Source: Geranomyces variabilis
Lineage: Eukaryota > Chytridiomycota > Chytridiomycetes > Spizellomycetales > Powellomycetaceae
Direction: 5' to 3'
Length of the DNA: 64,000 nt
Assembly (NCBI GenBank): GCA_027603065.1
Contig: JADGJP010000036.1
Span: 179,151 to 243,150 of the forward strand
Made by a program: the position numbers and the translations under genes. The stretch's first letter is position 1; each line of letters starts with the position of its first letter. Below, piece after piece: positions 26,254 through 43,847 of the stretch. Under the pieces are notes generated by a model. It saw only the letters and a program-made list of their open reading frames with translations. It did no database searches and was not told the DNA's origin.

Positions 26254-27606
26254 TCATGACTTGCGCTGCGTGGACACGTCGCGCTGATGAGAGAAAGAAC
26301 AGTCAGATATTAGCATGAACAAAACACTCAGCTCCCGCTACTCACAATGGCCTCAAGATATGCGCGCAAATGTTCGGGGTCGTGGTCAGGATGCATTCCA
26401 TGTCCCAAATTTGCAATGTACCGCGTTCGGCTGCCAAATTTCTCAAGCATGATCGCAACCTCTGCCTTAATGGTATCGATCGGAGCGTACAGCAGGCTCG
26501 GGTCAGCGTTGCCCTGCAGCGAAACAGAAGTGCCGACCCGCGCGCGGGCCGATGCCGGGTCCATTGTCCAGTCTAGCGAGATGACGTCGTAACCAATTTC
26601 TGGCGTAGAAAGGCTCTCAAGAGCATAATGGGCGCCGCGCGCAAAGATGACCATGGGGATGGATGCGAGATCCGGGTTTATGTCTCGCAAGGCGGCGCGG
26701 ACACGCTTCGGGATTTGTTGAATGTAAGGGAGGGAGAATTCGTTGAACTGCGCAGGTGAGAGCTCACCGGCCCACGAGTCAAAGACTTGCAAAAGCTGCA
26801 GGCAGAAAGTAGGCACATCAGCGAAGGCGCTTCTGACGTTTCTATAATGAACTTTTTGTGCACCCACCTGAGCTCCCGCTTTCGCCTGGCCAACCAAAAA
26901 GTCCACGACAACATCTGTGACACGCTGAAGCAGCGTCTTGCTCTCTTCCGGCCATCGTCCCAGCCACGATTTTGCCTTGCTCAGGGTCTTGCTGCCTCCA
27001 CCCTCAATCATATACGCCATCAACGTCCATGGCGCACCAACAAATCCAAACAGCGGGCAACGGCCATCGAGTTTTGTGCGAGTAAGCGTAATGGCCTCAA
27101 AAACGTAGCGCAATTCTTCATTAACATCCACGTCAGTCTTCAGCCGGCCAAGATGCGACGGGTCGACAAGCGGGTCTGGGAAGTGCGGGCCTTTTGCCGG
27201 GACCATTTGAACTTCCAGACCAAGAGCTTGCGGAACAACGAGAATGTCGCTGAAAATGATGCTGGCGTCGAGGAGGCCCTCGTAGCGGTCAATAGGCTGC
27301 AGCGTGACCAAGCACGCGAGCTCGGGCGTGCGGCAAATTGTAAAAAAGTCATGCTTTGCCCGTTCTTCACGGAATTCTACCAGGTACCATAAGCAAGAAG
27401 ATGGCGTTTGAGTAGGCAGCAATCGTACACTTGCGGTACAAAGTGAAAGCCACGCGTAGTGCCATACCTGGCAAGTACCGGCCTGCCTGGCGCATAATCC
27501 ACACGGGAGTGCGCTCTACAGTTTCTCCGCGGGCAACCCGAAGGATCAAGTCATTCTTCAGCGGCGGAAAGTCTGCATCGGTGTGCGCCGGATACGGGAC
27601 GACCAT
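26254..27606 (-). CDS. HEM12: Uroporphyrinogen decarboxylase
   Basis: Decarboxylates the four acetate side chains of uroporphyrinogen III in haem synthesis; cytosolic. Four exons (27606-27468, 27376-26868, 26795-26346, 26283-26254) give 375 residues, the family length. Conserved sites: [19 protein letters not shown] (split by intron 1), the catalytic Asp in [66 protein letters not shown] and [15 protein letters not shown]. The last exon is only 30 nt and codes RDVSTQRKS. Confidence 0.95.
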
Positions 27607-28257: not shown

Positions 28258-31200
28258 TCACAAAACGATGACAGAATCTTCGGGGTATTTCAGCATTGCG
28301 AGTCTCTCCAGCACAGCTAAGTTCATCGCGGGCGGGCTGTTTGAAATACAAGTTGTCAGACCCTCGAGACAGCCTTCCTGCTGCGGCGGCCGTTTTGCTT
28401 TGTGCTCACTTACCCGCATATCATAATTACCGTGGAAGACTCCTTTTCCTCGCGGAGGGAGCTCCCACCAAACAACATACCGGACTGCGCACCGCTGACA
28501 GACCTTCTCGGCATTTCGCTCAGTAAGTCTCGACCCAAAGCACTGCCGGATCTCTGCATCTCCGCGAATAGGTCTTGCGATCCGCTTCCGCCTAAAAATT
28601 CCGCTGAGTCCTTGGCAATCTGCTCGTCCAGCAATCGAGTTGACTTGGACCCAGCGGCGGCTGAAGCCTTCTTGGCCGACGAAAGCCTCTGCCCGCTTTC
28701 GCCCATTTTGCTCAGCCGTCGTATATGGGTCCGGGCAAACGAGTTGTTCCCTACCGCGCTGGATGTAACGCCCTGGCCACGGGGATTGTAGGCAGGGAGG
28801 GCCCTGGCTAGAACCTCGGGAGTGATCGGTCCGATTTCGCCATTGTATATATCGTTATCGACCACGGAGTGGACGAGGTTCAAGATTTTGAGGTTGCCCA
28901 TATAGCTTTTCACTGCTTCGTCTAGCTCGTCTTGGGCAAACATGTCGCGATTGGTCCGATTGATGTTCAGCAGACTGATAGTTGTTTTTGGACGACCAGT
29001 GGCAGGATCCCGCGAAGCATAGCGAAGATGATAATCGATTGTCATGAGCAATGGCGTGAGACCTGAAGCAAGACGCCAACGCATGTGAGCAACAACGAAA
29101 AGCATGGCGTTTTCGATAAGCTCCCCTTAAGCCTTACCAGAACCACCGGCAATCATGCCGATGTTATCCCAACACCCGTTTTTATCCGCAAGGTTCATGG
29201 CATCAGTATGCAGCGAGGGTCCGCGCATACGAATGGCCTTGCATTCGACCAGATGCGCAGTCATAATTCCCACATTTACTTTGATATAAAAGTCCAGAGT
29301 CTTGGCGTTGATAACCCTGAACGGCGTGTACGGTCGGGTGACCACCTCGCCATTTTCGGTGATAAACTGCAGCAGCACGCTCTGCCCGGGAAAGATGTAC
29401 ACCTTGTCATCAGGAGATGGCAGCGCAAACTTGAATAGTCGGGTCGGGCGCGTGCGTCCGGGACCAGACACGATCTCACTCGACACAAGGGAAAACGTCT
29501 TGAATTCTTGCGAGGAAAGAGGCGACACGGGAGGTTGAGTAGGATTCCGCGCCCAAGGCGGAATGTAGCCTGCCGGCCGCTCAGAAAAGCTGTTCTTTCG
29601 ATCGAGGCTGGCCGCGTCACTTTCTTCATCGAGAACCGGCTCGAAGTTCAATGCTTTGTGTCCAGTGAGCCTGCCGACCGCAAGGCTGGCGAGAAGTGAC
29701 TCCGCGAGGCGGGAGTGGCGGTGAATTATTGAGAAGCCGGTAAGTTTTGCGGCTTGAGCTGTCGGACGCTTCTTGTCGCCTTTGGCTGCTTTTTCGGCTA
29801 GCGGTGGCCCATAGAACAGGTCGGTTGCATCCAGACCCACTGCTCCCGCCAATATTTTTTGGCCGCCAGGATGCCGGTCCATGAAAAGTCCCGCATCGTC
29901 TATTCCAGAGAGAAGAGAGTTTAGAATGTAAAGGCGTGCTGCCCTTGAGCTTTAGACCGGCTGGGCTCACATATGACGGAACGGATTACAATCCACTTCG
30001 ATCCCGTTTCCACGCGTTCGTGGATATTTTCCCACGTGAAGGAAGGAAGGCTCGAGCTGCTGGTTGGACCCTTTGCCTCCTCTGACTCCAACTTCCGGCT
30101 AGCCTTCCCGCCGTACAAAGCGTGGAAAATCGCGAGCAAGACAGGCATCATCAGAACTCCTGGGATATAAGCCCAGCGCAGCCCTGTAGAAATCAAGCAG
30201 CAATGGGGTAGTTAAGGTTCACACCAGTCGGTAAAAACCCATACGCGCGGCGAGCATAAAAGTTTCACCTACAATCGTATGAGGTCCCAGCAGTAATGTC
30301 TGTAACACCGAGAAACCCGTTACACAGTCCCAGAATGTAGGCCGCATAACCACACACCCAATGCATCTTTCGAATGTGCGCGTTGTACTTGACTGTCCAT
30401 ACATTGTCCCAGTTTCCGGCAAACTTGCCAAACCATGTCACCGTCATGACCAGGACAGTGGTGAAAAGGCCAATTTTGGGGTGCGCTTTGCTGGTATCGC
30501 CAAACCCGCCGATTAACGCCAGAAGCGCGGCCATGATAATCTGCGTGGGGAGGCGGCGCAAAATGTCAGTTAGTGTAGCCTGAAGTCTACATACCGACTG
30601 TCAGCTCCATGCGCGGCCAAGCACTCACCTCGCTGGTAACTAGTGACATGAGGGCCTGTCAAAATGTTGGAAATGTCAATTACTGGCTCGAGCCATCCAC
30701 ACTCCTGTGCGGCACTAGGCCTACCTGATGATACGTGACCCAAGTCCCGCCATTCTTCCAATAGCGTGCAATGTAGATTCCGACAGGGTACACATACGCG
30801 AACCCGGTAAACATGGTGACTCTGCGCGTAAGGGGATGGACATTAGACAAACAAGCGTTCAGCAAAGTTGACGCATGGCCCGGACTCAGGACAAAAGCGC
30901 TTTTCCTTTACCCGTGAAATACGTTCAGGTTGTAAAGGTGTGTGCCTTCATTGAGGATACTCGCTTTGCCTGTGTAAAAGTTCACAGCTGCGTGGGCGCG
31001 GTCGGTGGGACCATGGTACTGCAACGCGCCGTCTCCAAACGCGAATATCATGGGCATATCGGCATTGACAATATCGACGTCGTGAGCGTCGCCAGTGGAC
31101 AATGCGCGCGTGAACGTAAACGCGTTGAGGAAGGTGGTGTCGGTCGTTCTTTCAAAGCTTTGCATGTTGTCGGTGCCGCCCAAAGCGGTGTCTGGTGTCG

Positions 31201-33847
31201 GAACTTGGAGGTTTGTGCTAGATGCAAAGATTCATATTAGCGAATAGCACTAGGTTGGCCTCTTTTGCGAGGTGCCCAAGCTAACCTGTAACAATCTTGT
31301 CCAACCCAAGCGCCCGAGGCGTCTTTGTGGAACAGGTATATGTCGGCCGGAAGCATGTTGTCTCCAAAACCAAAACCAAACCACCCCTTCGCATTACTTT
31401 CAACTTTGAAGGTAACTGAAGTGGATCCCATTGACCATGATAGTTTCGTCATGCCATCCAACACCGTAACGGACAAATCTGCAGACGCAGTTTTCACCGA
31501 AGCACCCAAAACAGAATCCTTGACAGCCACAATGAACGGATTGTCGGGAAAAACATCAATCTGTGTGTTGGCCGTGACGATGTTGCCCATCTTTGCCCAC
31601 GTCTTGATCTCGGCGAGTTCGTCGGCAGTAAACTCGCCGGGGTTCTCATACCAGTGGCGATCACCATCGCGGATTCTCAAAAAGTTTTCTTTCACGATGG
31701 CGCTAGACAGAGGACCGAGAACCGCGTTGCCGGTGCGTTGCCCCTCAACTACTGCACCTGAAGTTATGCAAAAACAAATATGTGAGAAGACGGCATGACA
31801 GAGGGAGTGCGCTTTTGCGTCATCCTCTCAGCGAATATCTGATGCCTACCGACATAAGCCTTAAATTCCAATTTATATACGTGAGAATAATGTTAATGAT
31901 TGGGTAGTTGCCAGGAGACCAAAGCTGGCAAGCAATGCTTACGTCAATGTTGTTCATCGATGTTCCGTACAGACCAGCCAGCTTCGTTGCCACCTCCGTG
32001 TCATTTGTTATGTCGGCCCAGCTCGACATCCTGCTGAGGCCGTAGCTGGCTCGAAGGGTGTTGTAATCCGCGATCCCAAAATCCCGACCACTGTTTTGCG
32101 TCGCGATTAGACGTGCGCTGATGTCTAAAGGCTACAGACAACTCTCGCACGTCCCCCTTACCGCTGAATATTGATAGCAACGAGATCAAAGCGAGCCGGG
32201 AATGCAGCCATTGGCATACTGTTACGCACAACGGGCGCGTATCGACCGTCGACGGCCTGTTCGGGCTGCGATGCGAAACCACGAATGTAGGGCTCAATGC
32301 CCACTGCCATGAGGCCGGCGTAGTTATCGTCTGAGAACGCCTCTTCGAGAAGCTGGTCGTCGCAAACGTTTTTAGATAAGCAACGTCTACTAATATTGGT
32401 GGTCGGCACTAAAGACAGGCTGCTCACCTGATGGCCTTCGTGTATCGGATGTCCATTTTCGTCCAGCCGCCAGATCATGGCGTTCAACGAGCTATGGCCA
32501 TAACGCATCGCCACATTCATGAAAGCAAGATCGATCGCGGGATTGATGGACGAGTTGTAACCTGCGTAGTCGGGCGCCTGCACACCAACCAGAATCGGAT
32601 AGTAGTAGCTCATTGTGATTCTTTGAACAATAGCAATCATCCATCGCCGCGCTTCGTAAAATATCTGATCCGATGTCCAGGTTGGGTTGGCGGCGTAGAT
32701 CTGGCGAGCTCGGCGATTGTGCTCGCGAAACAGAAGGATGTAGTTGACTGTCAGGTGCTGCGGAGTATTCCGTAAAAGGACGAAAAAAGCCAAGAGCGTT
32801 GAGAAAAGCCCCGCCTTTACCATTACAGTAGCAATTAACAAGCCCAACTTACCGGGACTAGGTTGATTACAGGAAGCGTAAAGCCCAACGCACCTCCGAT
32901 AGTCGGTGGTGCCTCGCCAAGCTTTGTGTAGTTAACATACTTCAAGAGCCCGTTATCGCCCCGCATTGTGTTGCAACTATCCTCGGTTTGACCGTACAGC
33001 CCGCTGAGATCAATGAAGGGCGTGAAACCATTCAAGTAGATCCGCTCTTGCATTGGCATGCCATTGACATCGGCTGCTATTTGAGTGCCTACGGAAGCCG
33101 TGCGTGTCATCGGGATTTGCACAGTCCCCGTGTGTCCAGGATCAAAAACCGAATCTCCCGTGGGAACACTGATAGGAAAAGATTCGCCTGAACAGGAATG
33201 GCCCCCCTTCAGTCAGTTTGTTGCCCATGTTGATAGCTATGGTCGCACTGCAAGACTTTACCGGTTTTGTCTGGGTTGCTGGCCTCAGTGTGGAGAAATA
33301 ATCCCCACATGGGGAGCATTTCCGAGGCGGAAACATCATTGTAGAAGTCCGGGGCAAGACCAAGTCCCTCTTGCGAAATCGATCTAGCATTTGGCCACGA
33401 GGAGCCTCCGGGACCTTAGAGAGGGGGTCGTGAGGCGTCAGCCGACAACTTGTAAACGACAACCATCTTTGACGTCCACTAGCACTTGAACATACTGCAA
33501 GTCGCCGGGTCGCCATACATTGGCGGATGCTGGCGGATATACGGTTGATCTTTCAAGCCATAGGTCGGATTATCGCGATTATTATCCGTTCCATCTAATG
33601 TCGCATAATTAGAAAGCGAAGCGTCCCGCGCTTTGAGAGTTCGTTCAACGTCTCCCGGCTTCAATCGCTCAGTCACATTAAAGCCGAGATTCCAGGCACA
33701 TCCCGCGGCTTGCGCGGCCTGAACGTTGTCGGATAATTGCGCACGTCTTTCAGGCGTTGCAGCAGCTAGCGGAACAAGGATGCAGATGGCCGCCGCCGCA
33801 ACGGCGAGAGGCAGCAGGGCGACGCAAGTTCTTTCGCGCGCTTGCAT
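28258..33847 (-). CDS. Fusion: secreted haem peroxidase - DOMON - cytochrome b561 - cytochrome b5 - FAD/NAD(P)H reductase
   Basis: One multi-exon gene with continuing phases. The signal peptide is MQARERTCVALLPLAVAAAA onward. The animal-type haem peroxidase domain has LDGTDNNRDNPTYG, LPMWGLFLHTEASN (distal His region), IDLSGLYGQTEDSCNTMR, FREHNRRARQIY, AMRYGHSSLNAMIWRL (proximal His), RFDLVAINIQR, FGIADYNTLRASYGL and LRIRDGDRHWYEN. A DOMON domain follows (GWFGFGFGDNMLPADIYLFH). Next a b561 core with paired His (AHPKIGLF, RKMHWVCGYAAYILGL) in hydrophobic helices at about 30265-30850. Then cytochrome b5 (FMDRHPGGQKILAGAV), then an FAD/NAD(P)H reductase (VVTRPYTPF, NIGMIAGGSG, VIMICGPPAM) ending YPEDSVIVL. 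Inferred path: cytosolic NAD(P)H to FAD, b5, b561 across the membrane, DOMON, and the outside peroxidase. Substrate unknown. Confidence 0.85.
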
Positions 33848-33992
33848 TGCGATGCTTTTGCGATGCTTTGCTGGCGGTTAAAAAATTGCGGCTTTGTCGA
33901 GTTAAAATGTTAGGAAGCTGACCAATCAATAGGTGGGTCGCTTTTTCGACAGCTCGCGGACGGGGCCTGACCGCTAAAAGTCTCCGCGTTCA

Positions 33993-35028
33993 ATGCATCG
34001 TTCTTCTTTTCTTGTTTGCAACCCCGGCGTCGGTGCCCTCGAGACTATGAATCTGTTTATTAAATCCTTGGATATGAGAGCCGCGGCACTACTACTGCAG
34101 CAGCTCAAGCGGGTCGCGCTCGATTCCCGCGGCCATTTCCATCCACCCATTGCCGACCTAGAACAACCCCGCACTCTCACCGTCCTCTCCTACTACGCTT
34201 ATCATGGACCTGCAATATGGTATCGCCTGCCTCGCGAAATCATTGACAAGATTCTTTTTCACGGTGGCATTTCTGCACAACAACACTCCGCTGGCCATCG
34301 CGCTCCGCCTCGGACACGAGGGCTGTAGCGAAGAAGCGATTGACCGAGCGTTAATCGGGGGCCACTCGATTATGGTTCAGTTCCTGCACAATCACCACAA
34401 GCCCTGCAGCGAAAACGCCATGGACTAAGCACCAACACACTTTTATTAATCCGGGCATGTCAGGGTCGTTGTTATTCTGCATGAAACTCCGACAAGAGGG
34501 CTGCTCAACACGTGCAGATGGACGCTCCCGTCCTTCGGGGGAAATCTCAAAACGGGTGCGATGTTTGCACAGGAATCGACATGAGGGAGCCACAACGCAA
34601 GGAAACGAACTTGGGGCATTTACAGGTTATCGTATTTTTGTATTAAAATCGCAAAGGGGTCTGCTCGCCAAATGCACCATGGATGCAGCCGCCTCCAACG
34701 GCCCATCTCCGCGTGGTTCAATGGCTGCACCTTCGTCGGCAAGAGGGCTTCATGGTCTGGGCAACTAACACGGCGGCTAGGGAGGAGCCACTTGAAAGTG
34801 GTCAAATTCCTGCACGACCATCGCAAAGACTGTTCCGCCGCTGCCATGGACCAAGCCGTCCGCGGAGGCCACCTTACCGTGGTCAAATTTTTACATGAGA
34901 CTCTACACCTGCCATGCGATGTCGACGCTTGTTTCGTTGAGGCTGGTTACGATGATACGGTTGAGTACTTGCGAGAGGTGGGATACTCTGCGTACGAAAT
35001 AGTTTTTAGCGGGAGCGACGAAAATTAG
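33993..35028 (+). pseudogene. Decayed ankyrin-repeat gene
   Basis: The region translates, in changing frames, into ankyrin-like units of the type HEGCSEEAIDRALIGGHSIM, FLHNHHKPCSENAMD, HLRVVQWLHLRRQEG and SHLKVVKFLHDHRKDCSAAA. Continuity is broken by stops (TAA at 34426-34428 and a further stop about 20 codons on; TAA in a FLY-stop-N context near 34645) and by several frame changes between 34260 and 34800. A possible F-box-like LPREIIDKIL precedes the repeats. The last block is open to 35028. Introns do not easily explain all breaks, so I call it a pseudogene; such ankyrin families are expanded in chytrids (inference). Confidence 0.65.
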
Positions 35029-35538: not shown

Positions 35539-36609
35539 TTATGCACTTGGTGGTGAGCGGACGGGGCGCGCGCCAGTCGGGAACTCTCCGGCATCAACTG
35601 TGTTTGGGTCATATGACTCGTGATGATCATAGTACGCGCCGCCGTCGGCATAGTACGGCTGGCCCGCGGCTTGGTCGTAGTAGTCGCCGTAGTATGCCTG
35701 CTGCGGCTGGTTGGGGTCCTGGTAATACGGGTCGTAGGAGGCATGGTGGTTCGGGTCCTGGTAGTACTGGGCGGCGTGGTGGCCCTCGTATGCAAGCGCA
35801 GGATCTTGGTAGTAACCGCCGTGGGCCGGCGAGATGGGCCGCTGATCATACTCATGGCCACCAAGCATGTGTGACGGCGGCGGCACGAGAGCGGCTGTGG
35901 AGGCTACTGGCGAGGCCATTGCAAGAGTGGCTCCACTCGCAGACGCGGCAGAGTGGCCGATGCCCGGTGTGCGGCCGAGAGATGGCTTCTTTAGCGCCTG
36001 ACGCCACAGCGAGCCGTGGCCGCTAGGGTTGTTGAAATCCACGCGGTCGTCGTTGCGCAGGCGGGACTCGGACTGCCCGCGGCGGCGGCGGAAGCACACA
36101 AATGCGAGGGCAGTAATAAGGACTGCGGCGATAGCACATACAATCGCAATAATCGGGCCAACGCCAAGCGCCGAGCTTGACGTGCTTGCGCCGACCGCGA
36201 GCGAGGTGTCTGTGGCGCCGGGAGTGGCACCCAAGACCGAGCTCGAGGTTATGTCGCCGTTGAGGCCACTGGGCGCGGGCGCGAGAGACCGAGAAGTCGC
36301 AAGCACGGGCGGAAGAACATCAGATGCAACTGGCGTAGGCGTTGAGCGGGTCCGCGTTTCGGTGACAACGACGAGCGGTGGAGCGGACGTTGGCACGACT
36401 ACTGGCGGTGCTGATGTTACAGCCGCTGGCGGGACGACGACGGGAGGTGAAACAACCGGTGTGTTTACGGGCGGGACCACGACAGGAGGCTTTGTTGGCT
36501 GGACGACGGGCGGTGTGGGTGTGTCAGCGGGAGGAGTGGGCGGCGGCGGGTTGGCTTGCGTTGGCTTTGGCGTTGGCGGGGTGTCTGGCGGGTTTGAGCG
36601 AGATGCCAT
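35539..36609 (-). CDS. Pro/Thr/Ser-rich single-pass membrane protein with YYQDP repeats
   Basis: Single exon of 357 codons including the stop, starting MASRSNPPDTPPTPKPTQ at 36609. The first 170 residues are Pro/Thr/Val-rich and mucin-like. One membrane helix follows (GPIIAIVCAIAAVLITALAF), stopped by CFRRRRG. The cytoplasmic tail is rich in Tyr, Gln, Asp and His, with repeats of the type YYQDPN (three copies) and YYDQ. The layout recalls fungal wall-stress sensors or mucins, but there is no clear N-terminal signal peptide and no WSC domain. The longer frame upstream of this ATG lies in the probable promoter. Confidence 0.65.
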   Translation of the reverse strand: MASRSNPPDTPPTPKPTQANPPPPTPPADTPTPPVVQPTKPPVVVPPVNTPVVSPPVVVPPAAVTSAPPVVVPTSAPPLVVVTETRTRSTPTPVASDVLPPVLATSRSLAPAPSGLNGDITSSSVLGATPGATDTSLAVGASTSSSALGVGPIIAIVCAIAAVLITALAFVCFRRRRGQSESRLRNDDRVDFNNPSGHGSLWRQALKKPSLGRTPGIGHSAASASGATLAMASPVASTAALVPPPSHMLGGHEYDQRPISPAHGGYYQDPALAYEGHHAAQYYQDPNHHASYDPYYQDPNQPQQAYYGDYYDQAAGQPYYADGGAYYDHHESYDPNTVDAGEFPTGARPVRSPPSA

Positions 36610-37591
36610 GTTGATGAAGTGTTGCGTGCGAAATGTGGGATGGGATCGAGCGAGACAGGAAAGCGAGAGATGGAGCGAAGCAAGAGCGGGAACCACCCTC
36701 CTTTCCAGTAGTATAGCGTAGTAGTAGTAGCAGCCGTCGCCGCCGCCACCACCCACACCCACAGCCCGTCCGTCCTTTCCTTGTTGTCTTGCACTTTCTC
36801 TCCTCGTTCGGGAGTCGGGAGTCGGGAACCCCCTTGTGCCGGCCGTTGTGCGTGCAACGAGCGAGGAGAAACTTGCACGCAAACGCAAAACCCACAAGTG
36901 CCACACCGTCGCACAGCAAAATAAAATAAGCTTACTCAATCTGTAGACTGTACGCTTGTTTCTGGGACGGGCGCTGACTGGCTGACTGGCCGCTGCCGGC
37001 GCCACGTCCACGTTTCAGGAAACACAAAGCGGAAAGAAGCCCGGGACCGCGGTGCTGGCTTTTTCTGCCACGAAATGTTTTGGCGCTTGCAAAGCTCGAA
37101 ATCGCAGTGCGCGGCAATATGTGGACGAACTCCAATTTCCTGCGCACTTTCGAACAATCACTCCAGCTGTCTCTGTGAACAGCCTGTCCATCGGCATTCA
37201 CTTAGCCTTCGCAGCATTTTGTCAGTCGTCTGTCCGTTGTAAACTCAAAAGTCTCATCTGGAAAAATCGGCACTGGTCTCTTGCCGGACTGCGCAAAACC
37301 GTGACTCATCATGAGTTGTCGAAAAACTCCGGCCAACAGTGTGCAAGAGTATACCGTAAAATATTAACCGAGCTGTTGCCGTCGGCCTAGCGCTTATGAG
37401 AGCTTGTTTGTATTCGAATGTGGCGCTCAGCCGAAACTTCGTTTCTGCCGCTGCGTAGTGGCTAAATTTAGAATGCCTTTTTTACCCGCAACCTTTAGTG
37501 TCTCGTTGTTCTGGCCTTAAATATATGCCCATGAGGTGAAGAGGCATCCTCTGTCCGCCCAGAGTTCCCTCCGAGCTTCCCCCAGCAAACC
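36610..37591. other. Divergent intergenic region
   Basis: About 980 bases between two divergently transcribed membrane-protein genes. It presumably holds both promoters. ORFs at 37052-37390 and on the opposite strand show no family resemblance and no splice partners. Confidence 0.4.
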
Positions 37592-41500: not shown

Positions 41501-41639
41501 GTGGTGCGTTAGGATTGAGAGTTGGCGGGAAGAGCTTTAGCGTGCTGACGGCGGCGGCTGCCGAGATTGCATGCGGAGGAGAAGACAGCGGTGCCGATGC
41601 CTCGTACGGTTCCGAGGGACTAGTATGTATTTCAGCCAT
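38588..41639 (-). CDS. ASCC2/Cue3 (RQT complex, CUE domain) homologue
   Basis: Four exons (41639-40077, 40002-39602, 39521-39095, 39004-38588) give 935 residues. The N-terminal half is the helical ASCC2 region (FCLICRLAIAPLEAQ, LLEITTLFGDLNAGVLRDAF). A CUE domain follows: LISQVQDLFPELGEGFIEAC and LNDDAETVIMKILEDDLPDV. The acidic stretch YDDEYDDAYD after DRVHFGKK is also typical. ASCC2 and yeast Cue3/Rqt3 bind ubiquitin on collided ribosomes and help the Slh1/ASCC3 helicase split them (family knowledge). The C-terminus carries an unusual Gly/Arg-rich tail (about 38650-38820) with long GGGG runs, likely disordered and RNA-binding. It diverges from Clr2 across 83 bp. Confidence 0.85.
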
Positions 41640-41722
41640 CTCGTGTGTCTTGTGAAGAATTGTTGAGGTGGGAGGAGAGCGTTGGCGTTGGCGTTGGGGA
41701 AACTCTCAACTTGAACTTTGAC
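41640..41722. promoter_or_regulatory. Divergent promoter, ASCC2 / Clr2
   Basis: Only 83 bases between opposed start codons; includes a GTTGGCG repeat pair at about 41681-41695. Inferred from layout. Confidence 0.35.
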
Positions 41723-43847
41723 ATGGGGACCAGTCACTTTCAACCTGCGATCTTTCCAATTCAATATCCCGCCGGCATGCTCCCCCCGCTCGTGCTGGAC
41801 AAAGTCCCGTGTCCTGCCTTCTCCGACGGAAATGCCGCCTTGCATCCGCCCGTCATCGTTCCCACCGACGATGTCAGAGGCTATGAGAACCCTACGCCCA
41901 GTGCTCTAGCTTCCTGGCTCGGCAAGTGTGCTGCGATCGCGACAAAGGAGTACATTAAGCACCCAGAACGCTGCCCGGGGTTCCAGTCGCAAATGCACGG
42001 GTCGGTGACGTTCGCCGCCGGTGCCACAATGCCCGACTTTCCCTCCGGCTACCGACTGGTGTTTCTGCAAAGGTTCACGAGCACAGCGAGTCAAAGTCAA
42101 ACCAAAGCTGGTGATCCATACCTGTGTGGCCACCCGTCCGGCGCAAAGTTCCGAAGCATGCCCGAGTTTGCGCCGCATCTTCAATGGCTGGTGTCGGATG
42201 CCTCTCATGACTATGCCAACTGCTTGTGCAGGCACTGCCCGAGGATGGTGTCAGGCGGAAGCCAGTCCACGCCAGTCCGCGCAGCCCGCAAACGAACCGT
42301 GTCCAAGAACAGCGCCGGGACACCGACAAAAGATATCGAGCCCATTGTAATCGCAGATACCCCGCTGCAGCCGCAGAAAACTCCGCGACCAAAAAGCACA
42401 GCTAAGAAGCCTGCCGCCGCTACCGCGCCCGCATCTACGTCTGCGCCCTATCCCGATGTGATCCTCATTTCTGATTCGACATCTAGTAGTTCCCCTGCCG
42501 TAACACCATCCGTCACTAAGAAACGACCTCCGGAAGGCGAGCCTGCTTCTTCCTCAAAGAAGAGGAAATTAAACCCTGCCACGTCAGACGTAACGCCATC
42601 CTCAGTCATCGCAATTTCCTCTCCGCTCTTGGCGTCCGGCTCATTGCCTGACTCTCCCTCTCAAAAATCTAATGGCGTTCCGCCCAGCGTCATGAGCGGG
42701 CGCGAAAACCTGCCAGATCGAGTCGTCAGCACTTCCGCAGCTTCTCATACGAAAACCGTCGCTCCTCGTGCGCTCCAAAGCACACTTACCGAGCCGCTGT
42801 TTCGCCTTGGAGATGTGGTGTGGATTCAAGTATACTTGGCATTGTTGACGAGCCACTCGACCATTATCCCGCTTCCCCTTCCGACAAATCCCGCCAATTG
42901 TGTGGACAGTAGCTCGCTGCGTGGAAGGATTGCCTACTGGCCAGCAGTCGTTAAGGCGGCTTACGACAAAAAGTCTGAAGGCAGCTCATCGGGAATCACG
43001 CCATTTTGGGTGCCTCCTCTATGGCATGAGCCTGGACCGCAACCAGGCGCCCCTCTCCTGTTTGCCCCAACACATCAGTACCGGAACGATCCGCAATGGA
43101 AAGGCTTTGCGTACGTTGTACGCTTAGTGGATACTCCGGTTGAGTTTAAAACGCTGGAAGAATATGTGCGACCTTTTTCGGGCTTTGTGCTACCTCGTAC
43201 GCTGAGGGTGGGAGCCGCCGCTTATGAACAGTTCTCGCAATGCTGCTCTGATGACACCCTCAAACGGTATATTGCAACTGCCAATAAGGTGAGCTTGCCA
43301 TTTTTAAAACCACAGATTATGGCGGAATACTGACTTTATTGGCCAGGTGTATGAGTACGCACGCACGGTCGTGCGCATTGCGGGCCCTGCCCCAAAAGTT
43401 CTTCCGCCGCTACCGGATACACCACCAGGGCCTCCGGGACAGCCATCCTGGGAGATGATACAGATTGGCGCTGAACACATTTGCGTGCATGATTTTGTCC
43501 GTGCAAACGCCTCCCCTGTCGCAATGCCTAAGGCCAAGCAAAAGCCGGTCATCTCGATTGTCCAAATTCTGGGGATAAGCTGGAAGCGGGATTCAGCTGT
43601 GCAACTAAGCTGTCGCCAGATGGTAGTTTGCGATGCTGATGCGGCGCAAGACTTTGCAGATCCGACCTTTGCACGAAGATGGGACGGGCGCTGTCAAGTT
43701 GTGCGCGCCAAAGAGAAAGCCCCTATGCTGACCCTCGCTGTCGAAAACATTATCGGACGGTACTACCCAAGCTTGAAAGGAATTGATGGGTGGTCTGGGC
43801 CCCGCACGGCGGTTGCGGTGACTCAAAGCAATATTGAGCTGGCGTAA
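41723..43847 (+). CDS. Clr2-like transcriptional silencing protein (SHREC component)
   Basis: Two exons (41723-43288, 43347-43847) give 688 residues. The Clr2 silencing region is recognisable: DPYLCGHPSGAKFRSMPEF, APHLQWLVSD and NCLCRHCPRM (a zinc-knuckle-like Cys pair). A Ser/Lys-rich nuclear linker with KKRKLNP follows. The C-terminal part has a BAH-like/Clr2-type domain, for example FRLGDVVWIQVYLALL, RIAYWPAVVKAAY, FWVPPLWHEPG and CVHDFVRANAS. In fission yeast Clr2 works in SHREC with a histone deacetylase and the Mit1 remodeller to silence heterochromatin (family knowledge). Start chosen at the ATG that begins MGTSHFQPAIFPIQYPAG. Confidence 0.8.

What the first reader, a model, noticed from the sequence alone, without database searches (positions are those of the whole stretch)
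28258..33847. Five-module redox fusion: peroxidase-DOMON-b561-b5-reductase
One gene appears to encode a complete electron chain from cytosolic NAD(P)H to an extracellular animal-type haem peroxidase. Seen: signal peptide, peroxidase motifs including FREHNRRA and MRYGHSS, DOMON, b561 with paired His, HPGG cytochrome b5, RPYTPF and GGSG reductase motifs, and a CGPP motif near the C-terminus. Known: dual oxidases link a peroxidase to an NADPH oxidase; DOMON-b561 proteins reduce extracellular acceptors. Inference: this is a convergent, DUOX-like design in which b561/DOMON replaces the gp91 core, possibly for wall cross-linking, oxylipin or peroxide chemistry.
Basis: partly seen in the sequence, partly recalled or inferred. 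Interest (0 to 1): 0.87.

Follow-up and report, generated by a model that had tools for sequence, protein, structure and literature searches.

The report
Fungal peroxidase-like transmembrane electron exporter
One fungal gene appears to encode a single membrane protein that could carry electrons from fuel inside the cell, along a chain of haem sites, to a peroxidase-shaped domain outside that lacks residues a peroxidase normally needs, a layout resembling animal dual oxidases but built on a different membrane core.

Summary
On the minus strand, 33847 to 28258, 16 exons joined by 15 GT-AG introns (68-95 nt) give one 1463-residue protein without a stop: signal-like N-terminus, An_peroxidase, DOMON, b561 (weak), cytochrome b5, FAD and NAD lobes ending in CGPP. 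All four module junctions lie inside uninterrupted exons, arguing against two genes. The window looks fungal.

The interpretation needs correcting. REHN is not the catalytic arginine. The catalytic Arg and ester Glu positions are Val and Leu, against Arg and Glu in 82 of 82 comparable references (83 in all); the distal Gln is Leu. Alignments disagree on the distal His. Proximal His and Asn remain. The head is probably a haem-binding pseudoperoxidase.

Best reading: an outward NAD(P)H electron exporter, a CYBDOM-type core with a peroxidase-homology head. It works like a dual oxidase but is not one: no EF-hand or NOX core. O2 as final acceptor is inferred; kinship with the DUOX head is unresolved. 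No eukaryotic protein collection was searchable, so distribution is unknown; none of the papers listed by ten searches was seen to describe it.

The parts
28258..33847 (-). Whole gene: 16 exons, 15 GT-AG introns, 1463-aa protein
   Evidence: Spliced model, no in-frame stop; exon-to-residue map
33755..33847 (-). Signal-peptide-like N-terminus (residues 1-31, hydrophobic peak 9-27)
   Evidence: Mean hydropathy 2.67; coordinates; no dedicated signal-peptide program was available
31543..33607 (-). Animal haem peroxidase (PF03098) homology domain, residues 81-578
   Evidence: Pfam E 1.4e-101; PDB 8s6c E 5.6e-79, 6erc E 2.1e-58
33284..33301 (-). Altered distal motif LFLHTE (residues 156-161); references read mostly QFLDHD or QFIDHD
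   Evidence: 82 of 83 reference rows were matched by the pattern and all 82 have Gln and, four places after it, a His. Register of the window's His is disputed: Thr at the His place against 8s6c; His kept against 6erc and myeloperoxidase
32170..32496 (-). Span holding proximal haem ligand H368 (32494-32496) and its partner N451 (32170-32172); intron 4 lies between
   Evidence: His in 83 of 83 references, Asn in 82 of 83; coordinates
31850..31859 (-). 10-nt microexon 7 that keeps the reading frame
   Evidence: With it 389.8 bits, without it 318.4 bits and 8 stops in the modelled stretch
31286..31757 (-). Exon 8: unbroken exon joining the peroxidase end to the DOMON start (residues 507-664)
30929..31455 (-). 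DOMON domain; Pfam match 608-725; candidate haem ligands M641 and H732
   Evidence: Pfam E 4.9e-13; Met-His spacing 91, as in CRR (M89/H180); HYP1's is 84 (M90/H174)
30113..30928 (-). b561-type membrane core, five helices inferred, His 765/797/827/867
   Evidence: Weak Pfam match 765-887, E 0.01, below cut-off; helices 2-5 pass the hydropathy cut-off, helix 1 does not
29652..30043 (-). Cytochrome b5 domain, H977 (HPGG) and H1029
   Evidence: Pfam E 8.2e-12; PDB cytochrome b5 matches, best E 1.8e-6; second ligand chosen by eye
29172..29510 (-). FAD lobe of a cytochrome b5 reductase type, RPYTPF at 1156
   Evidence: Pfam E 4.9e-8; PDB 2eix E 5.8e-15 for the b5-plus-reductase query
28261..29162 (-). 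NAD lobe, GGSGLTP 1219 and CGPP 1437, with a Ser-rich insertion about 1319-1428
   Evidence: Pfam E 3.8e-9; CGPP segment aligned to 2eix only weakly on its own (7.3 bits); coordinates

Best explanation
A single-chain trans-plasma-membrane electron exporter. NAD(P)H reduces FAD in the cytosolic C-terminal reductase; electrons pass to the fused cytochrome b5, then to the inner (H797/H867) and outer (H765/H827) haems of a five-helix b561 core, then to an extracellular DOMON haem (M641/H732), and finally to a peroxidase-fold haem domain (ligand H368 with N451). That head lacks the catalytic Arg, the ester Glu and the distal Gln, so it is unlikely to act as a normal H2O2-using peroxidase. It more likely serves as the outer reducing or docking site. 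The most likely final acceptor is O2, giving superoxide/H2O2 outside, as dual oxidases do. Shown by computation: gene structure, domain order, ligand residues, distal losses. Inferred: haem loading, topology, electron direction, membrane, final acceptor.
For: One open reading frame through all modules, with junctions inside exons 8, 9, 13 and 14. Domain matches. Haem-ligand candidates present in each cytochrome module. DOMON Met-His spacing 91 equals CRR's; b561 pairs 765-827 and 797-867 resemble CRR's 220-289 and 256-325; CRR is a five-helix protein with a cytosolic C-terminus that reduces external iron (PMC10784552, passages). Basic residues per loop: 2, 4, 4 expected inside against 2, 0 expected outside. 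Catalytic Arg and ester Glu in 82 of 82 comparable references (83 in all) but Val275/Leu278 here; replacing that Arg is said to abolish peroxidase activity in the superfamily (PMC6368334, passages). Proximal His and Asn kept.
Against: No transcript or protein data. b561 is below the Pfam cut-off, and the DOMON-b561 part finds nothing in the PDB by sequence at E up to 10. Helix 1 fails the hydropathy cut-off, and a marginal extra peak lies inside the peroxidase domain at 271-289. Several alignments keep a distal His (against 6erc and myeloperoxidase). The CYBDOM proteins read about are described as iron reductases, so O2 is not the default acceptor. No other organism's copy was found to show conservation.
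Confidence: 0.5

Rival explanations
1. A metal reductase: the CYBDOM core reduces ferric or cupric ions (or quinones) outside, driven by NAD(P)H instead of ascorbate, and the altered peroxidase head only docks, folds or binds a partner.
For: CYBDOM proteins CRR and HYP1 reduce external iron or ferricyanide (PMC10784552 and PMC10784544, passages); DOMON domains occur on eukaryotic ferric reductases of Naegleria, Albugo and Phytophthora (PMC3591440, passages).
Against: The peroxidase domain keeps its proximal His, Asn and Ca-loop motif, so it still looks able to hold haem; a pure docking role would not obviously keep them.
Confidence: 0.3
2. A self-fuelled peroxidase: the outer haem turns over H2O2 or lipid peroxides with unusual distal residues, and the built-in chain supplies the reducing equivalents.
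For: Full-length match to the peroxidase family; His159 lies in the distal helix region and takes the catalytic place in some alignments (against 6erc and myeloperoxidase).
Against: Arg and Glu positions are lost with either intron-3 acceptor, and the distal Gln is Leu.
Confidence: 0.15
3. Two neighbouring genes, or an assembly chimera, read as one.
For: No cDNA and no second genome were available; the model is computed.
Against: Each of four junctions lies inside an uninterrupted exon, GC3 is even across modules, and all 15 introns are GT-AG of 68-95 nt.
Confidence: 0.05

Closest known systems
Dual oxidases (DUOX1; PDB 7d3e, 6wxr)
   Same: N-terminal peroxidase-homology domain with altered catalytic residues, followed by membrane haems and a cytosolic FAD/NAD reductase (PMC4420034, passages, and general knowledge). 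The 7d3e sequence reads GYHVLSD at the distal motif.
   Different: DUOX has EF-hands and a NOX core; here b561, DOMON, b5 and a b5-reductase type. Losses differ: DUOX is described as lacking the proximal His and aligns a Ser there, while this protein keeps it; by hand count on the 7d3e letters DUOX1 keeps an Arg 16 before RYHN and has Arg, not Glu, at 13 before. DUOX was not found in the four fungi of PMC1940245, and PMC9421330 lists fungal NOXA, NOXB, NOXC and unclassified forms (passages).
CYBDOM proteins (Arabidopsis CRR and HYP1; mammalian SDR2)
   Same: DOMON with Met/His haem-ligand candidates followed by a b561-type core with four His, five helices expected.
   Different: In CRR the DOMON follows the signal peptide and nothing is described after b561 in the passages seen, and ascorbate is the donor; this one has a peroxidase head before DOMON and a b5 plus reductase after b561.
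Bacterial peroxidases of the peroxidase-cyclooxygenase superfamily (PDB 8s6c and the Planctomycetota-rich set)
   Same: Closest sequence relatives of the head found here: MAFFT identity 39% to 8s6c, best-segment identity 33-37% for the 80 loci kept of 508.
   Different: 82 of 82 comparable rows keep Arg and Glu, and 82 of 82 matched rows keep Gln and distal His (83 rows in all). In the 10 longest C-terminal tails scanned, Pfam finds RTX, Ig-like, fn3 and other domains, and no DOMON.
DOMON-bearing ferric reductases of Naegleria and oomycetes
   Same: Extracellular DOMON on a haem membrane reductase (PMC3591440, passages).
   Different: They use a ferric-reductase core; no peroxidase domain is described on them in the passages seen.

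Membership tests
Dual oxidase (DUOX) | N-terminal peroxidase-homology domain | tested here: met
   Pfam E 1.4e-101
Dual oxidase (DUOX) | EF-hand calcium domain | tested here: not met
   No EF-hand among the 6 Pfam families at E up to 0.1
Dual oxidase (DUOX) | gp91/NOX ferric-reductase core | tested here: not met
   No ferric-reductase family at E up to 0.1; weak b561 plus b5 and b5-reductase-type lobes instead
Dual oxidase (DUOX) | Peroxidase domain groups with DUOX in a tree | tested here: inconclusive
   Joined to DUOX1 with support 10 among 46 rows, flagged as long branches meeting
Peroxidase-cyclooxygenase superfamily (active peroxidase) | PF03098 domain | tested here: met
Peroxidase-cyclooxygenase superfamily (active peroxidase) | Distal Gln and ester Asp of GQxxDHD | tested here: not met
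   GLFLHTE: Gln is Leu; Asp is His or gapped
Peroxidase-cyclooxygenase superfamily (active peroxidase) | Distal catalytic His of GQxxDHD | tested here: inconclusive
   Thr in that place against 8s6c; His in that place through a one-residue gap against 6erc and myeloperoxidase
Peroxidase-cyclooxygenase superfamily (active peroxidase) | RxxE: catalytic Arg and ester Glu | tested here: not met
   Val275/Leu278 against Arg/Glu in 82 of 82 comparable references; the 83rd, L049, lacked the anchor motif
Peroxidase-cyclooxygenase superfamily (active peroxidase) | Proximal His with Asn partner | tested here: met
   H368, N451
CYBDOM | DOMON with Met/His pair ahead of b561 | tested here: met
   DOMON Pfam; M641/H732 spacing 91 as in CRR
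CYBDOM | Signal peptide directly followed by DOMON | tested here: not met
   A peroxidase domain of about 500 residues lies between
CYBDOM | b561 core, four His, five helices | tested here: inconclusive
   Four His in spacing like CRR's but Pfam below cut-off and helix 1 below the hydropathy cut-off
CYBDOM | Ascorbate as electron donor | not testable with these tools
   A fused reductase suggests NAD(P)H instead (inference)
Cytochrome b5 reductase | FAD RPYT, GGSG and CGPP motifs with both lobes | tested here: met
   RPYTPF 1156, GGSG 1219, CGPP 1437; both lobes in Pfam; PDB 2eix E 5.8e-15

The most novel reading that the evidence does not exclude
Fungi built their own dual oxidase independently: an NAD(P)H-to-outside electron machine in which a CYBDOM core plus cytochrome b5 replaces gp91, topped by a peroxidase domain that lost its peroxidase chemistry through different residues from those lost in DUOX. 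If so, a non-peroxidatic peroxidase head is a recurrent, useful part of outward reductases rather than an evolutionary leftover.
Probability: 0.3. Interest if true: 0.82.

Novelty: new variant of a known kind. Interest (0 to 1): 0.62.

Why it matters
The role of the modified peroxidase domain of dual oxidases is described as obscure (PMC4420034, passages). A second outward reductase that carries a degenerate peroxidase head on an unrelated membrane core would offer a comparison that no DUOX mutant can give. It would also be a predicted five-haem wire with its own NAD(P)H reductase in one chain, useful for studying trans-membrane electron export.

Tried and rejected
Own genome: none is held, so paralogues beyond the window could not be sought; tblastn against the window found only the gene itself. 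Viral contigs: no relatives of the peroxidase or of the DOMON-to-reductase part. Plasmids: 13 records, each matching only the peroxidase part (query 85-587 at the widest), none covering 80% of the query. Bacterial loci: no match of the window's DOMON-b561 or b5-reductase part at E up to 0.1 in ORFs of 80 aa or more of the 81 loci held; this phmmer test is weak for distant relatives. NCBIfam: nothing at E up to 0.01 for the head or the DOMON-b561 part; the reductase was not scanned there. tRNA genes and Rfam families at gathering scores: none in the window.

Splice alternatives: retaining intron 4 lowers the peroxidase score (370.9 against 389.8 bits) and dropping microexon 7 gives 8 stops. The 38-nt intron-3 alternative scores the same (390.4); it aligns Leu and Thr with the Arg and Glu columns, its Arg being one place off. 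I disfavour it because the other 14 introns are 68-92 nt, not by score.

No listed paper was seen to report a peroxidase-DOMON-b561 fusion. Five of the lists were shorter than the number of papers found (10: 30 of 5,298; 20: 25 of 601; 21: 12 of 28; 22: 20 of 21; 56: 10 of 11). Ten papers were read by passages only; the others were seen as listings. The library holds only open-licence papers. The 2007 DOMON-domain paper and the 2009 DUOX1 peroxidase-domain paper are not held.

The reference set is biased: 80 of 508 confirmed bacterial relatives were kept, the best by similarity, found with patterns drawn from conserved motifs. With 8s6c, 6erc and one plasmid protein it makes 83 rows and holds no fungal or invertebrate peroxidase.

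My estimate that the head is non-canonical went from 0.8 to 0.75; other odds stand, since they rest on the Arg and Glu.
Full report
What is there. The gene is on the minus strand and runs from ATG at 33847 to TGA ending at 28258. Joining 16 exons across 15 GT-AG introns of 68-95 nt gives a 4392-nt CDS and a 1463-residue protein without an internal stop. Pfam reads, in order, An_peroxidase, DOMON, cytochrome b5, FAD and NAD lobes, with a sub-threshold b561 match between DOMON and b5. Peroxidase and DOMON share exon 8, DOMON and the first b561 His share exon 9, the last b561 helix and b5 share exon 13, and b5 and the FAD lobe share exon 14. Codon third-position GC is 0.57-0.65 in every module, and intron GC (0.488) is below CDS GC (0.537). 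These facts make a two-gene reading unlikely.

Organism. No genome is held. Among 20 ORFs of the window scanned, two match Clr2 transcription-silencing and RanGTP-binding Pfam families (both matches in 38). I take these, from general knowledge, as fungal. Repeat-like ORFs upstream look chytrid-like by eye only. No species is claimed.

Membrane core and reductase. Four His lie at 765, 797, 827 and 867; DOMON Met641 and His732 are 91 apart. In Arabidopsis CRR the pairs are 220-289 and 256-325 and the DOMON ligands 89 and 180, also 91 apart; CRR has five helices and a cytosolic C-terminus (PMC10784552, passages). In HYP1 the DOMON ligands are 84 apart (PMC10784544, passages). Four of the five expected helices pass a hydropathy cut-off of 1.4; helix 1 does not, and a marginal extra peak (1.44) lies at 271-289 inside the peroxidase domain. 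Basic residues favour the expected inside loops modestly: 2, 4 and 4 inside against 2 and 0 outside. An odd number of helices would put the b5 and reductase in the cytosol. The reductase matches NADH-cytochrome b5 reductases and nitrate reductase (2eix E 5.8e-15), with CGPP separated by a Ser-rich insertion. PDB searching by sequence found nothing for the DOMON-b561 part at E up to 10.

The peroxidase head. Its best PDB relatives are 8s6c (called lactoperoxidase; 269 bits), peroxinectin A 6erc (201), myeloperoxidase and lactoperoxidase (about 145-163) and DUOX1 (117-124). The superfamily signatures are GQxxDHD, RxxE and a proximal His with an Asn (PMC4420034, passages); that the RxxE Arg is the catalytic one in myeloperoxidase (R239, E242) I also recall. 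The window reads GLFLHTE and, 16 and 13 residues before REHN, Val275 and Leu278. Of 83 references 82 had the anchor motif, and all 82 read Arg and Glu there; L049 lacked it. Gln is kept in 82 of 83 references.

The distal His is undecided. The in-register alignment, which makes it a Thr, is given by MAFFT on three sequences, by a profile of 83 references and by phmmer against 8s6c. A one-residue gap that keeps His159 as the distal His is given by MAFFT on 84 rows and by phmmer against 6erc and myeloperoxidase. In either register Gln, ester Asp, Arg and Glu are gone. Replacing the Arg is said to abolish peroxidase activity (PMC6368334, passages). Proximal His368, Asn451 and the calcium-loop motif TPFIDLS are kept.

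Is the model right at that spot? The missing RxxE lies at the exon 3/4 junction, so I tested it. By eye, no frame of intron 3 encodes RxxE. The only other upstream acceptor I saw that keeps the frame gives a 38-nt intron, scores the same (390.4 against 389.8 bits), and aligns Leu and Thr with the Arg and Glu columns. Splicing intron 4 and including the 10-nt microexon are both favoured.

Kinship. A 46-row tree (window, four PDB proteins and 41 bacterial rows, every second of the rows over 430 residues) joins the window to DUOX1 with support 10 and flags long branches. The sequence cannot say whether the DUOX-like head is shared or convergent. The losses differ: DUOX is described as lacking the proximal His and aligns a Ser there, while the window keeps it. 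By hand count DUOX1 keeps an Arg at the catalytic place, which the window lacks.

How it probably works. NAD(P)H, FAD, b5, inner b561 haem, outer b561 haem, DOMON haem, peroxidase-fold haem. The ligand residues for this route are shown; haem loading, direction and final acceptor are inferred. I commit to O2 as final acceptor because the overall layout matches an oxidant-producing machine and the head cannot easily use peroxide. A metal reductase is a close rival, since that is what the CYBDOM proteins I read about are reported to be. My separate estimates are 0.93 for one gene, 0.8 for outward electron flow, 0.75 for a non-canonical head and 0.4 for O2.

Against what is known. It works like a dual oxidase but fails two defining features of that family (EF-hands, NOX core). 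It is best filed as an extended CYBDOM-type reductase with a peroxidase-homology head. The bacterial relatives found carry no DOMON in the 10 longest tails scanned. A 2007 survey did not find DUOX in its four fungi, and a 2022 survey lists fungal NOXA, NOXB, NOXC and unclassified forms (PMC1940245 and PMC9421330, passages). None of the papers listed by ten searches was seen to report this fusion. Subscription papers and eukaryotic protein databases were not searchable here, and five of the lists were capped, so it may be recorded elsewhere under a generic name.

Noticed in passing
window 26331-27515 (-): Uroporphyrinogen decarboxylase, a haem-synthesis gene, lies just downstream in the same orientation as this multi-haem protein (Pfam E 1.4e-104; PDB). 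Whether this is more than chance is unknown.
   Followed up: partly
window 33978-35028 (+): Short plus-strand ORFs upstream with ankyrin-like repeats (e.g. GHLTVVKFLHE), possibly a broken or spliced repeat gene; read by eye, not scanned.
   Followed up: no
window 28443-28772 (-): Ser-rich insertion of about 110 residues (1319-1428) inside the NAD lobe just before CGPP; possibly a regulatory loop.
   Followed up: no
window 41624-43330 (+): ORF with a Clr2 transcription-silencing domain (Pfam E 2.3e-17).
   Followed up: no
window 35542-37014 (-): 491-aa ORF with a Pro/Thr/Ser-rich stretch, a hydrophobic segment and a Tyr-rich tail, read by eye; no Pfam match at E up to 0.001.
   Followed up: no
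L021, L006, L042, L034, L038, L062, L049: Bacterial relatives of the peroxidase head carry RTX calcium-binding repeats C-terminal to the domain (7 of 10 tails scanned).
   Followed up: no
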